This document shows, one piece after another, positions 29,350 through 33,228 of a stretch of DNA of 64,000 nucleotides; the first letter of the stretch is position 1; each line of letters starts with the position of its first letter. The notes under the pieces were generated by a model, which saw only the letters and a program-made list of their open reading frames with translations, was not told where the DNA came from and did no database searches. Source of the DNA: Evansella cellulosilytica DSM 2522 (lineage in GTDB: Bacteria > Bacillota > Bacilli > Bacillales > Salisediminibacteriaceae); assembly GCF_000177235.2 (NCBI RefSeq), contig NC_014829.1, positions 2,356,001 to 2,420,000 on the forward strand. Reading direction: 5' to 3'. The translations under genes and the position numbers were made by a program.

Positions 29350-30261
29350 ATGTTTAAAAAGTTATTATTAAGCTTATTATTAGCAGGATCTTTCATGTTA
29401 GTAGCATGTGGGGAAAACGAAGAAGGTACGTCATCTGATGATACTGATACTGATGGACTTACGATTGCAACTAGTTTTTCCGTTTTAGGTGATATTATTT
29501 CACAAATTATCGGTGAACACGGTACTGTCGATTACATTGTACCGATAGGAGAAGAACCGCACGAGTATGAGCCAGTTCCAAGTGATTTTCAGAAAGTGAC
29601 GGATGCCGATGTATTTTACATTAACGGTCTTGATTTAGAGGAGTGGCTAGAAAAAATAGTATCAAACGTTTCTGATACGGACATTGTGGAAGTTTCAGAT
29701 GGGGTAACACCAATTCCTTTAGTTGGGGATGATGAAGCAGATCCTCACGCTTGGTTAAGTCCTAAAAATGTGATGACATACGTAGATAATATTGTTGAAG
29801 ATTTAGTAGAAAGAGATCCTGATGGTGAGTCAATTTATCGTGAAAATGCTGAAGCCTATAAGTCTGAGTTAGAGGAATTGGATGCTTGGATTGAAGAGCA
29901 AGTAGCAGATATTCCTGAACAACAACGTGTTATTATCGTAAGTGAAAATGCATTTAAGTATTTTGGTGAAGACTACGGGTTTGACACGGAAGGAGTTTGG
30001 GAAATCAATTCACATGAAGAGGGCACTCCTCAACAAGTCAACCGTATTATTGATATTGTAGAGGAAAGAGAACTACCAGCTGTCTTTGTTGAAACAACAG
30101 TTGATAAACGCTACATGGAAACAGTCTCTGAAAATACAGGCGTTCCAATTGCTGGAGAAGTGTATACAGATGCAGTTGGTCCTGAAGGTAGTGGAGCGGA
30201 AACGTATATTGGTATGATGAGAGAAAATGTGAATGTATTTGTTGAAGGTTTAAAGAACTAA
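29350..30261 (+). CDS. Metal ABC transporter substrate-binding lipoprotein, manganese type
   Basis: The product has 303 residues. The lipoprotein signal ends in LVAC (Cys20), followed by an acidic linker. It is a cluster A-I (ZnuA/PsaA) binding protein. Likely ligands are His in EEPHEYEPV, His in DPHAWLSPK, Glu in SHEEGTPQQ and Asp in YTDAVGPEG. The H-H-E-D set, and the lack of a His-rich loop, fit manganese or iron rather than zinc. The MntR-like box upstream agrees. No permease or ATPase gene is adjacent, so the rest of the transporter must lie elsewhere. Its terminator is split by an IS110 element. Confidence 0.88.
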   Translation: MFKKLLLSLLLAGSFMLVACGENEEGTSSDDTDTDGLTIATSFSVLGDIISQIIGEHGTVDYIVPIGEEPHEYEPVPSDFQKVTDADVFYINGLDLEEWLEKIVSNVSDTDIVEVSDGVTPIPLVGDDEADPHAWLSPKNVMTYVDNIVEDLVERDPDGESIYRENAEAYKSELEELDAWIEEQVADIPEQQRVIIVSENAFKYFGEDYGFDTEGVWEINSHEEGTPQQVNRIIDIVEERELPAVFVETTVDKRYMETVSENTGVPIAGEVYTDAVGPEGSGAETYIGMMRENVNVFVEGLKN

Positions 30262-30269
30262 AAAGATAG

Positions 30270-30284
30270 AAGAAGGTGACTCAA
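30270..30284 (+). terminator. Left arm of a terminator interrupted by IS110
   Basis: AAGAAGGTGACTCAA here is exactly complementary to TTGAGTCACCTTCTT at 31871-31885, on the far side of the IS. Without the element they would form a perfect 15-bp stem with a 9-base loop (ACTGACCTG), 8 bases after the lipoprotein stop. Confidence 0.8.
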
Positions 30285-30324
30285 ACTTTCATGGCTTAAT
30301 AGCCACCACTATGAATGAAAATGA

Positions 30325-30531
30325 CTTGCGACCTGTGCTTGCTAATTTTTATAATAAGATTAGCAGGTCACAGGTCGTCCCTTTATTGGTGGAATTTTTA
30401 CCCCGCGACTCAAACCGACCGAATACACCTACGAGCACCGCTAATTGTCGTTAAGAACACGTGTATAAAAATACCATGCTTACAGGTGTATGACCTGCAT
30501 CATTTCTATTTTTATTAAGGAGTGATGAGTT
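30325..30531 (+). ncRNA. Candidate bridge RNA of the IS110 element
   Basis: Two stem-loops are visible. The first is at 30329-30377: CGACCTGTG/CACAGGTCG, then GCTAAT/ATTAGC. The second is closed by TACACCT/AGGTGTA (30424-30430 with 30484-30490). At 30407-30420 is GACTCAAACCGACC, which equals the reconstructed insertion target GACTCAAA-CT-GACC at 13 of 14 bases. CAGGTCA at 30364-30370 is complementary to the right side of the target. These are the kinds of guide sequences expected of a bridge RNA. RNA ends are not determined. Confidence 0.6.
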
Positions 30532-31764
30532 ATGGATGCAGTATTGGAAAGATGTGCTGGACTAGATGTTCATCAGGAAGAGATTGTAGCTTGTGTTATG
30601 TATGGTCCATTGGAAAAACGACCTAAAAAAGAGACACAAACTTTTCTTACAACGACGAAAGGCTTACTTGCACTTCATGATTGGCTAGAAAGCTTTAAAT
30701 GTACCCATGTCGCAATGGAAAGTACTGGCGTTTATTGGAAACCAGTGTGGAATATTCTAGAGGGGAGCTTCGAATTAATTCTTGCCAATGCAAAGCGCAT
30801 TAAGAATGTTCCTGGTCGTAAGACCGATGTCAGTGATGCAGCCTGGATTACCCAGTTATTGAGATGTGGGTTGATCACACCTAGTTTTGTTCCACCTGAA
30901 AACTTCCGAGATCTACGGGATTATACTCGTTACCGTAGAAAGCTTGTTGGCAATGCATCTTCAGAAAAAAATCGTATCCATAAGATCTTACAAGATGCAA
31001 ACGTCAAGTTAACCACTTTTGTTAGTGATTTATTTGGTGTATCTGGACGAGCTCTTTTAGAGTCAATCATTAATGGTGAGGTGTTAACGGAGGAGCAGGT
31101 AAGAAGCTTGGTGAAAACTTCTTTAAAGAGAAAAGTACCTCAATTAGTTGATGCTTTAAATGGACGAGTACGCCAGCATCATCGAAAAATTATTCGCATG
31201 CATTATGATCATTTAATTTATCTTGAGAAACAAATTTCAGAATTGGAGGGCGAAATCGACCGTCTAATAACCCCCTATGACGAATATGTTGAATTACTCG
31301 ATACAATCCCTGGTGTAAGTTTTAATGCTATAGCGGTGATTATTGCAGAGATTGGCGTAGATATGTCTTGTTTCCCATCTGATAAGCACTTAGCTTCATG
31401 GGGTGGATTATGTCCTGGTAATAATGAGAGTGCTGGAAAGAAAAAAAACTCCCGGACCCAAAAAGGGAACAGGAGTTTAAAGGGTGTCCTTTGTCAAGCA
31501 GCATGGTCCGCATCCAAATCCAAAGGAACCCGCCTCTCCTCATTCTTCCATCGTGTGCAGAAGAGAAGAGGTCAATATAAAGCATCGATGGCTACAGCAC
31601 ATCTTATTTTAAGGATAATATATCATATTATTAAAGACAAGATCCCCTATGAAGAATTAGGGTGGGATTATGCAGAAAAAGATACGGAAAGGAAGATAAA
31701 CTACTGGATTAAGAATATTGAGTCAAAAGGCTTTAAAGTGACGGTAGAACAACCTACAGCCTAA
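30532..31764 (+). CDS. IS110-family recombinase (DEDD transposase)
   Basis: The product has 410 residues, full length. The N-terminal RuvC-like domain carries the acidic tetrad: Asp in CAGLDVHQEE, Glu in VAMESTGVYWKPV, and two Asp in GRKTDVSDAAWI. The middle is a long coiled coil (HLIYLEKQISELEGEIDRL). The C-terminal Transposase_20 domain starts at LLDTIPGVSFNAIAVIIAE and holds the conserved serine block CPGNNESAGK. Both domains act together with an RNA guide in this family. AAGGAG lies 9 bases before the ATG. No disruption is seen, so it could be active. Confidence 0.93.
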   Translation: MDAVLERCAGLDVHQEEIVACVMYGPLEKRPKKETQTFLTTTKGLLALHDWLESFKCTHVAMESTGVYWKPVWNILEGSFELILANAKRIKNVPGRKTDVSDAAWITQLLRCGLITPSFVPPENFRDLRDYTRYRRKLVGNASSEKNRIHKILQDANVKLTTFVSDLFGVSGRALLESIINGEVLTEEQVRSLVKTSLKRKVPQLVDALNGRVRQHHRKIIRMHYDHLIYLEKQISELEGEIDRLITPYDEYVELLDTIPGVSFNAIAVIIAEIGVDMSCFPSDKHLASWGGLCPGNNESAGKKKNSRTQKGNRSLKGVLCQAAWSASKSKGTRLSSFFHRVQKRRGQYKASMATAHLILRIIYHIIKDKIPYEELGWDYAEKDTERKINYWIKNIESKGFKVTVEQPTA

Positions 31765-31913
31765 AAGTAAAAAAATGGAAAAGAGTACCCGTAAGGATAC
31801 CCTCCCCCTTTTTTTGTTTTTTTGACCTACAAGGTATTCATTTTCGTATAAAAAAGGTTGAACTGACCTGTTGAGTCACCTTCTTATTGTTTATTTCAAG
31901 TAAAAACTTGTAT

Positions 31914-32261
31914 TTATGAACTTGTAATTTTAACAATTTCTACAGGTCCATGGTCATCACAATGATCACCATGGACGTGGTGCAATCTACCGTTAACTAA
32001 ATAATCCATATGATCTCCATGTGGAACCATTTCATGTCCACAGTCTTCGTCATGGTTACATCCACATGAAATTTCACTACAGTCTGCTGGATTATTCTCA
32101 TTTACAGGTATTGTACACTCATCCCAATGCCCATTATGCTCATGATGTAAATGCCCATTATGAACATAATCAATATGATCATCATGTCTAATTTTCGTAT
32201 GACCACATGCAATGCTATGTTTATGAGCGTGACCCTCATGTACGTCATGATTATTGTTCAT
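31914..32261 (-). CDS. His-rich metal-binding protein with two tandem repeats
   Basis: From the ATG at 32259-32261 (AAGGAGGG upstream) the product has 115 residues, of which about a quarter are His. Two repeats follow one plan: CGH-x4-H-x-DH-x-DY-x3-G-x-LHH-x-H. They are CGHTKIRHDDHIDY...NGHLHHEHNGHWDEC and CGHEMVPHGDHMDY...NGRLHHVHGDHCDDH. Between them is a Cys cluster (CSEISCGCNHDEDCGH). It is soluble with no signal peptide. It likely stores or hands over zinc or a similar metal. It converges on the manganese-type binding-protein gene across the IS110 element. Confidence 0.8.
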   Translation of the reverse strand: MNNNHDVHEGHAHKHSIACGHTKIRHDDHIDYVHNGHLHHEHNGHWDECTIPVNENNPADCSEISCGCNHDEDCGHEMVPHGDHMDYLVNGRLHHVHGDHCDDHGPVEIVKITSS

Positions 32262-32403
32262 TTTATCCCTCCTTATCTTCATTTTCCCCTTTTTTTACTA
32301 CTTCAACCAAAGAAATATGAAGAAAAGTATCATGTACATGGTAGAGGATTCAACCTTTGTAGCTTACATGAGGGAGAAATTAATATTGACCAATCAATTA
32401 TAG

Positions 32404-33228
32404 TTAGGAAATACTCTCCTTTTTTCCTATAAAGCTAACCATTCTTCCCGTTTTCCCCTTGTCTCTTCGGTGTGAAAAAAATAGAGATTCACTGCAGCTC
32501 GTGCAATAATGAGAAACGTCTATATTTTCTTTTAATATTCCAGACGCCACCATAAGCTGTAAATTTAATTGTTTTAAGTCCAATGCGTATTGTCCGGCAC
32601 TCACTTTTGAATATGGCTTATGCTCACCTTGAAGTACATCATTAACAAAATGAATAACATGATCGTCAACAACGTAACAGCAAGGACCAATGGATGGGCC
32701 GATAGCTGCTTTTATATTAGCTGGATCAACATTTTCATCTTTCGTCCACTTATGTACCATTTCACCTACTATATTTTTCACTGTTCCTTTCCAACCGGCA
32801 TGCGCGATACCAACGATTTCTTTTTTAGGTTCGTAAAAATATAGTGGGACACAATCAGCAAAGCAAAGTGCTAATAGTATATTTGTTTCTGTCGTATAAA
32901 CACCATCAGTAGATTTTATGCTATTTTGGTAATCATAAACGCCAGAACCAGCCATTTTATTTGTAACTTTAACAACTTTGTTTTCGTGTACTTGATCTGA
33001 ACAAGCCCACCTTGACGTAGGAAAATCGATTAGTTCGGAAAGCTTATTTCTATTCGTTGCAACAGTTTGAGCATCATCATTTACGTGTAACCCGAGATTA
33101 AACGAAGAAAAAGGAGATTCACTCAGCCCACCGTTTTTTGTTGTAAACCCTGTTATTAGCTTTGAATTGTTCCATGAATTTAACAATAGGATTTGTTCAT
33201 TTATTAACTGAAAAGGCTCTTTTAACAT
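32404..33228 (-). CDS. pgeF: Peptidoglycan editing factor PgeF / YlmD-YfiH family
   Basis: The product has 274 residues, full length. It was formerly called multicopper polyphenol oxidase (DUF152). Active-site motifs: ITGFTTKNGGLSESPFSSFN at the start, WACSDQVHENKV (first His), LALCFADCVPLYFYEP (Cys), GIAHAGWKGTV (second His) and IGPSIGPCCYVV. Members act as purine nucleoside phosphorylase/deaminase-like enzymes or remove wrong residues from peptidoglycan precursors. CAAGGAGG precedes the ATG. It is far from the division cluster where ylmD usually sits, so it may be a paralogue. Confidence 0.88.
   Translation of the reverse strand: MLKEPFQLINEQILLLNSWNNSKLITGFTTKNGGLSESPFSSFNLGLHVNDDAQTVATNRNKLSELIDFPTSRWACSDQVHENKVVKVTNKMAGSGVYDYQNSIKSTDGVYTTETNILLALCFADCVPLYFYEPKKEIVGIAHAGWKGTVKNIVGEMVHKWTKDENVDPANIKAAIGPSIGPCCYVVDDHVIHFVNDVLQGEHKPYSKVSAGQYALDLKQLNLQLMVASGILKENIDVSHYCTSCSESLFFSHRRDKGKTGRMVSFIGKKESIS

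What the first reader, a model, noticed from the sequence alone, without database searches (positions are those of the whole stretch)
30286..31862. IS110 element encodes its own target: a 14-base target-like guide in the 5' non-coding region
Removing the element between its two CT dinucleotides restores GACTCAAA-CT-GACC at the junction. The element's 5' non-coding region contains GACTCAAACCGACC at 30407-30420, matching at 13 of 14 bases, with the only mismatch in the core dinucleotide. CAGGTCA at 30364-30370 is complementary to the right side of the target, and two stem-loops (30329-30377, 30424-30490) frame these segments. IS110 elements are known to use a bridge RNA whose loops pair with target and donor. 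This looks like such an RNA with a readable target, here a transcription terminator loop.
Basis: partly seen in the sequence, partly recalled or inferred. Interest (0 to 1): 0.8.

Follow-up and report, generated by a model that had tools for sequence, protein, structure and literature searches.

The report
Transposon guide RNA with mirrored guides
A bacterial jumping gene carries an RNA that spells out where it lands, here a hairpin repeat scattered through its host's genome, and the two address labels in that RNA are in the opposite order to those of IS621, the best-studied relative.

Summary
The genome holds five copies. All five follow TGACTCAAA, but the right junction is an A-run then GGT; none of the other four copies has CT-GACC there. 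The element is about 1569 bp, ending near 31853, not 31862. The empty site is inferred, not observed: a hairpin (TGACTCAAAAGGT-loop-ACCTTTTGAGTCA) of a repeat matched 78 times in the genome. The left-target guide is GACTCAAA (30407-30414); GACC and CAGGTCA are stem strands. In 28 elements the 3' side of the target loop matches the left flank and the 5' side the reverse complement of the right flank (0 of 100,000 permutations each); the IS621 order gets no support, and IS621 itself shows the opposite order. The proposed 27-pair structure covaries. So an upstream RNA and 410-aa recombinase (IS110-like) go with the guide order reported for IS1111 and a 5-10 bp subterminal inverted repeat: a new variant of a known kind. 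Expression and activity are untested.

The parts
30285..31853 (+). IS110-type element, about 1569 bp including one 2-nt core; register uncertain by 1-2 nt within the A-run
   Evidence: junctions of five copies
30277..30285 (+). left target TGACTCAAA in the left arm of the target hairpin; core probably AA at 30283-30284
   Evidence: identical in 5 of 5 copies; agrees with the guide in relatives
31852..31885 (+). core AA, right target AAGGT, loop and right arm of the interrupted hairpin
   Evidence: right junctions of five copies; mirror arm in 4 of 5
30363..30369 (+). bridge RNA stem P1, 5' strand (GCAGGTC), pairs with 30492-30498
   Evidence: 7 of 7 pairs with changes on both sides, 88.1% of cells paired, 30 sequences; also in RNAalifold
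30373..30377 (+). stem P2, 5' strand of the target loop (GGTCG), pairs with 30416-30420
   Evidence: 89.9% of cells paired, 3 of 5 pairs with changes on both sides; not in the RNAalifold prediction, but in the fold of this element's 30363-30498 alone
30379..30384 (+). right-target guide (CCCTTT), 5' side of target loop; CCTTT is the reverse complement of AAAGG at the right junction
   Evidence: 5' side agrees with the reverse complement of the right flank over 28 elements and in the T-run-free test over 20
30406..30415 (+). left-target guide slot (CGACTCAAAC), 3' side of target loop; GACTCAAA equals the left flank
   Evidence: 18 of 19 further elements also fit
30423..30430 (+). stem P3, 5' strand, closes the donor loop, pairs with 30484-30491
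   Evidence: 79.1% of cells paired; 8 of 8 pairs have changes on both sides, but the outermost pair (columns 72-154) is unpaired in 24 of 30 sequences; 7 pairs also in RNAalifold
30446..30461 (+). apical hairpin of the donor loop (UGU..ACG)
   Evidence: 91.9% of cells paired, 3 of 5 pairs with changes on both sides, 2 never vary; not in the RNAalifold prediction
30463..30471 (+). left-donor guide GTATAAAAA, on the 3' side of the donor loop, equal to the element's right end
   Evidence: agrees with the right end over 26 elements, 0 of 20,000 permutations
30492..30498 (+). stem P1, 3' strand (GACCTGC)
30317..30324 (+). left half of a subterminal inverted repeat (GAAAATGA)
31838..31845 (+). right half of the subterminal inverted repeat (TCATTTTC)
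30532..31764 (+). 410-aa IS110-type DEDD recombinase
   Evidence: PF01548 and PF02371; NF033542

Best explanation
This is an IS110-type insertion sequence whose 5' end encodes a bridge RNA (about 30363-30498, sense to the transposase). Stem P1 closes a junction that carries a target hairpin (P2) and a donor hairpin (P3). The 3' side of the target loop (GACTCAAA) is identical to the left flank and so would pair with the bottom strand; [quoted passage not shown] the two meet at a core in the A-run, probably AA. The 3' side of the donor loop (GTATAAAAA) equals the element's right end. By analogy with IS621 the recombinase-RNA complex brings the circular element to the hairpin repeat TGACTCAAA|AGGT and joins them at the core. 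The order of the target guides is the reverse of IS621 and ISEc21 and is the order reported for IS1111 RNAs, although the RNA lies upstream of the gene as in IS110. Shown by sequence: insertion sites, guide-flank agreement, structure covariation, RNA strand. Inferred: transcription, binding, strand exchange, exact core.
For: 5 of 5 copies at TGACTCAAA. Over 28 elements, 3' guide against left flank 7.68 of 8 (other pairs 4.15) and 5' guide against the reverse complement of the right flank 5.36 of 8 (other pairs 3.74), 0 of 100,000 permutations each; in the 26 elements with both flanks the IS621-order tests are null (17,068 and 6,553 of 20,000). T-run-free trimer test: 20 elements, 7 exact against 0.37 expected, 0 of 100,000. 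Donor guide against right end: 8.12 against 5.87, 0 of 20,000. Structure: 27 pairs, 21 with changes on both sides, score 0.378 against 0.205 shuffled, slid controls 0.090-0.124; P1 and P3 also found by RNAalifold. 91 G.U against 17 A.C cells favour the sense strand. 18 of 19 further elements carry the left guide in the same slot. IS621 shows the opposite order.
Against: The right-target guide is short and T-rich, and in 15 further elements a crude test for it was null (4.13 against 4.02; 35,812 of 100,000). The right-donor guide was not found. L072 (4 of 8) and L106 (3 nt) do not fit the left guide. An element's own left flank is strictly better than all others for its guide in only 12 of 28, better or tied in 25. 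Permutations ignore relatedness. RNAalifold does not predict P2 or the apical hairpin. Folded whole, the 246-nt region prefers a 5' hairpin that takes up the 5' strands of P1 and P2. The structure tested was drawn by me from the alignment. No empty site was found. No expression data.
Confidence: 0.83

Rival explanations
1. One reading: one continuous 14-nt target copy (GACTCAAACCGACC) in the RNA, CT core, element 30286-31862, target GACTCAAACTGACC.
For: 13 of 14 letters match at the one site in the window.
Against: None of the other four copies has CT-GACC at its right junction; GACC lies in stem P2; GGT extends the hairpin stem in 4 of 5 copies.
Confidence: 0.03
2. Canonical IS621 order: the right guide lies 3' of the left guide, and the 5'-side matches to the right flank are coincidences of T-rich sequence.
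For: Guides of 5-6 nt in T-rich loops are weak one by one; the test on 15 further elements was null.
Against: IS621-order tests null, found order 0 of 20,000 on the same 26 elements; the T-run-free test holds; the left guide sits in the 3' slot in 45 of 47 elements (27 of 28 at 7 or 8 of 8, 18 of 19 at 6 nt or more).
Confidence: 0.09
3. The recombinase recognises the hairpin by structure or protein-DNA contact, and the RNA match is a relic of captured flanking DNA.
For: Some relatives also sit in palindromic sites (read by eye: L043, L060, L071).
Against: Guides differ between elements and follow the flank, including sites that do not look like hairpins (L091-L094).
Confidence: 0.04
4. The functional RNA is the antisense strand, which would turn the guide polarity round.
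For: None found.
Against: 704 of 807 cells pair on the sense strand against 630 on the antisense; 91 G.U against 17 A.C.
Confidence: 0.02

Closest known systems
IS621 (IS110 group) bridge RNA, PMC11208160
   Same: RNA upstream of the gene, two guide-bearing loops, target guides that meet at a 2-nt core, DEDD recombinase; target in a dispersed palindromic repeat (REP; recalled, not from a call)
   Different: Target guide order reversed (IS621: left guide at left-end position 73, right guide at 98); recombinase 410 aa against 326 aa; core probably AA, not CT
ISEc21 seekRNA (IS110 family), PMC11187229 section 12
   Same: Upstream non-coding region; both strands of the target matched
   Different: In ISEc21 the top-strand match lies 3' of the bottom-strand match; here it lies 5'
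IS1111-family seekRNAs (ISEc11, ISPa11, ISKpn4), PMC11187229 sections 6 and 9
   Same: Top-strand match 5' of bottom-strand match; a subterminal inverted repeat
   Different: IS1111 RNA is usually downstream of the gene and the transposase 330-350 aa; here upstream and 410 aa, with the repeat about 32 and 9 nt from the ends
IS110 founder subgroup (395-455 aa transposases, PMC11187229 section 6)
   Same: Length class; a 42%-identical Streptomyces element (L136) has the same left-guide slot
   Different: IS110 itself was not compared here

Membership tests
IS110 family (broad) | DEDD transposase domain with Transposase_20 domain | tested here: met
   PF01548 1.2e-27, PF02371 3e-21; NF033542 269.6 bits, cut-off 140
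IS110 group | long non-coding region with bridge RNA upstream of the transposase gene | tested here: met
   246 nt upstream; covarying structure there
IS110 group (IS621/ISEc21 type) | bottom-strand guide 5', top-strand guide 3' | tested here: not met
   IS621 compared; PMC11208160 passages, PMC11187229 section 12
IS110 group | subterminal inverted repeat absent, or short and imperfect | tested here: inconclusive
   7.25 bp mean in 28 elements against 5.04 with shuffled right ends; own against other pairs 7.25 and 6.59, 42 of 100,000 permutations; IS621 gives a 7-bp match in the same kind of scan
IS1111 group | RNA-bearing non-coding region downstream of the gene (usual, with exceptions) | tested here: not met
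   about 90 nt downstream, 246 nt upstream
IS1111 group | transposase 330-350 aa | tested here: not met
   410 aa
IS1111 group | top-strand guide 5' of bottom-strand guide | tested here: met
   compared with PMC11187229 section 9
IS1111 group | transposase phylogeny within IS1111 | not tested
   no IS1111 transposase was compared
Bridge RNA / seekRNA systems | RNA binds the recombinase and directs recombination | not testable with these tools
   needs biochemistry
Bridge RNA systems | donor guides matching both element ends | tested here: inconclusive
   left donor guide agrees with the right end; right donor guide not found

The most novel reading that the evidence does not exclude
These elements are a third architecture of RNA-guided recombinase, mirrored relative to IS621 in both loops (target guides in reverse order, left donor guide on the 3' side). 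They join an IS110-type upstream RNA and long recombinase with the IS1111-type guide order and subterminal inverted repeats, would be a link between the two groups, and would show that guide order is independent of where the RNA is encoded. The left-guide slot is found from Bacilli to Streptomyces, Planctomycetes, Acidobacteria, Myxococcota and Proteobacteria.
Probability: 0.5. Interest if true: 0.7.

Novelty: new variant of a known kind. Interest (0 to 1): 0.57.

Why it matters
Siddiquee et al. reported that guide order differs between IS1111 and IS110 seekRNAs and took it as a sign that mechanisms may differ (PMC11187229 discussion). An upstream-RNA element with the other order breaks that link and makes the evolution of the two groups testable. 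It also gives reading rules for predicting targets in a broad clade of programmable recombinases, where IS621 rules would assign the guides to the wrong sides.

Tried and rejected
GGAATTTTTACC (30392-30403) as the right-target guide: it is the reverse complement of the right flanks of L003 and L004 over 11-12 nt, but the 80%-identical relative L089 keeps ATTTTTACC while its right flank is GCCCC, so I treat it as chance or a shared feature of unknown role. CCATG (just 3' of the donor guide) as the right-donor guide: not kept in the relatives. Column scan for the right-donor guide: best association element position 158 with left-end position 2 (0.62 against 0.34 expected), which does not stand after several hundred comparisons.

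Orthologous empty site: 8 of 9 same-genus genomes, own included, have the left-hand gene. One search showed the wrong side of the gene for the loci on the minus strand; one search read the right side of all nine sister loci: GACTCAAA is absent from the first 260 bases after the match in 9 of 9, and 5 of 9 (L122-L125, L128) have other 8-bp inverted repeats there. So no empty site was obtained.

Rfam: 0 matches at E up to 1 in 29500-32500. Promoter-like sites: 4 against 4.8 in shuffles. Right-guide test in 15 further elements: null.

Rows dropped or adjusted: of the 80 loci, 29 were aligned with the window element, picked by me as one per element type with a usable left end. In one search the left test lacks L052 and L062 (contig breaks), the right test lacks L057 and L120 (no right end). 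Right flanks of L054 and L059 and the last slot base of L058 were entered by hand from earlier listings. The T-run-free test skipped 8 further elements without a clear T-run. Further set: 25 candidates, 19 used, 6 dropped (L113, L118, L103, L137, L098, L074); it holds three close Acidobacteria (L091, L093, L094) and one Peribacillus element (L139). L138, L092, L111, L112 and L142 were seen but not entered. In one search four of the 19 (L110, L139, L140, L090) gave no right end. Identical left guides removed: 19 elements, 7.63 against 3.95, means only; identical 5' guides removed: 18 elements, 0 of 100,000.

Full report
The element. Window 30532-31764 encodes a 410-aa transposase with PF01548 and PF02371; NCBIfam model NF033542, IS110 family RNA-guided transposase, scores 269.6 bits. 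The two solved sequences found at E up to 0.01 are IS621 (52 bits) and ISCro4 (35.5 bits), so it is distant from them. The genome (one contig, 4,681,672 bp, unnamed) has five copies, 99-100% identical, each with an open frame without internal stops.

Boundaries and target. All five copies have TGACTCAAA to the left of CTTTCATGG. To the right they read CGTAT, a run of 5 or 6 A, then GGT, then different sequences. In 4 of 5 copies the right flank carries the mirror arm of the left flank, and GGT extends that stem by pairing with ACC: exactly in L002 (GGATGACTCAAAAGGT...ACCTTTTGAGTCATCC) and L003, with one mismatch or bulge in the window copy and L005. The fifth copy (L004) has GGTAAAAATTCCAGG and no mirror arm. 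The segment shared by both junctions is an A-run, so the core is probably AA, uncertain by a base. The element is about 1569 bp, 30285-31853.

The target is a dispersed repeat. TGACTCAAN{6,30}TTGAGTCA matches 78 places in the genome, 0 for the reversed-pattern control; GTGACTCAAAAGG with up to one mismatch matches 119 and 126 times on the two strands against 3 and 0. Of eight other same-genus genomes, three have 12, 2 and 6 matches of the hairpin pattern and five have none. Of 15 hairpins inspected, 0 lie inside an ORF of 100 aa or more by my own ORF scan.

The RNA. From 80 relatives found in public genomes I aligned 29 left ends with this one. I read from the alignment a closing stem P1, a target hairpin P2 and a donor hairpin P3 with an apical hairpin. 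Counted on the alignment: 27 pairs, 21 with changes on both sides, 87.2% of 807 cells paired, covariation score 0.378 against 0.205 (sd 0.011) in shuffles; slid controls 0.090-0.124. One P3 pair is unpaired in 24 of 30 sequences. RNAalifold, which predicts on its own, finds P1, P3 and a 3-pair stem inside the target loop but neither P2 nor the apical donor hairpin. This element's 30363-30498 folded alone forms P1, P2 and P3, but the whole 246-nt region prefers a 5' hairpin that uses the 5' strands of P1 and P2. On the transposase-sense strand there are 91 G.U cells against 17 A.C, so the sense strand is the likely RNA.

Guides. The 10-nt slot between the conserved ACCCCG-like motif and the P2 strand equals the left flank: 22 of 28 elements match 8 of 8, five match 7, one (L072) matches 4; mean 7.68 against 4.15 for mismatched pairs, 0 of 100,000 permutations; own flank best or tied in 25 of 28, strictly best in 12. 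The 5' side of the loop agrees with the reverse complement of the right flank: 5.36 of 8 against 3.74, 0 of 100,000. Without the T-run, 7 of 20 trimers are exact against 0.37 expected, 0 of 100,000. In the 26 elements with both flanks the opposite (IS621) assignment is null for both sides (17,068 and 6,553 of 20,000), while the found assignment gives 0 of 20,000 for both. The donor guide on the 3' side of the donor loop agrees with the element's right end (8.12 against 5.87, 0 of 20,000). The partner donor guide was not found. The permutations do not correct for relatedness.

Control and breadth. IS621, in four copies from E. coli plasmid records, shows the left guide ATCGGGCCT (8 of 9 letters of the left flank ATCAGGCCT; longest exact match 5 nt) at left-end position 73 and the right guide around GCGTAG (9, 6, 9 and 7 nt exact in the four copies) at 98. 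Durrant et al. (PMC11208160; [quoted passage not shown] Siddiquee et al. (PMC11187229; outline with abstract, and sections 6, 9, 12, 13, 14) report the same for ISEc21 and the reverse for IS1111 elements, whose RNA is usually downstream. Here the reverse order occurs with an upstream RNA. In 19 further elements (Streptomyces, Planctomycetes, Acidobacteria, Myxococcota, Proteobacteria, and one Peribacillus) the slot matches the left flank in 18 (longest match 6-9 nt; mean over all 19 8.0 against 4.15; 0 of 100,000). The right guide could not be confirmed there.

Inverted repeat. GAAAATG(A) near the left end and (T)CATTTTC near the right end form a subterminal inverted repeat; over 28 elements the longest repeat is 5-10 bp, mean 7.25 against 5.04 with shuffled right ends, 7 bp or more in 22, at a similar register in most. 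Own pairs exceed other pairs (7.25 against 6.59, 42 of 100,000 permutations). A like scan gives 7 bp in IS621, so length alone is weak evidence. Such repeats define IS1111 (PMC11187229 section 6).

Verdict. The unusual point is the mirrored order. Literature searches for a prior description listed 4, 20 of 451, 20 of 30, 3, 10 and 2 papers. Those on the mechanism were the two papers above, the IS621 structure paper (PMC11208158, search listing only) and TIGR-Tas (PMC12045711, passages); I judged the rest by title and abstract start and did not open them. Figures and supplements were not read and bioRxiv is not held, so Durrant Extended Data Fig. 10 or later preprints may already show such an order.

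Noticed in passing
whole genome, for example L026-L040: A near-identical hairpin (TGACTCAAAAGGT-loop-ACCTTTTGAGTCA) matches 78 places in this genome and 0-12 places in eight sister species; 15 of 15 inspected lie outside ORFs of 100 aa. How it spread or stays uniform is unexplained.
   Followed up: partly
window 30328-30378: A strong hairpin (-32.8 kcal/mol) pairs CGACCTGTG with CACAGGTCG and competes with the 5' strands of P1 and P2; similar upstream copies are seen by eye in some relatives (L042, L060, L089) but not in others (L045). It could be a switch or a processing signal.
   Followed up: no
window 30392-30403: GGAATTTTTACC is the reverse complement of the right flank of L004 over 12 nt, outside the guide position; probably chance.
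   Followed up: partly
L004: One copy's right flank (GGTAAAAATTCCAGGCC) lacks the hairpin's mirror arm, unlike the other four.
   Followed up: no
L148, L149: Two further, different IS110-type genes in the same genome.
   Followed up: no
L071, also L061 and L070: Paenibacillus relatives sit in palindromic repeats (L071: TGTAATCGAAAAACCGATTACA, with an uninterrupted copy downstream; L061 and L070 similar with other letters).
   Followed up: partly
L091-L094: Acidobacterial relatives have TACGAGTA at the left junction, by eye the 3' end of a coding sequence.
   Followed up: no
window 31914-32282 (-) and 29350-30261 (+): The interrupted hairpin lies between a gene like metal ABC transporter binding lipoproteins and a His-rich 122-aa ORF with no NCBIfam match.
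   Followed up: no
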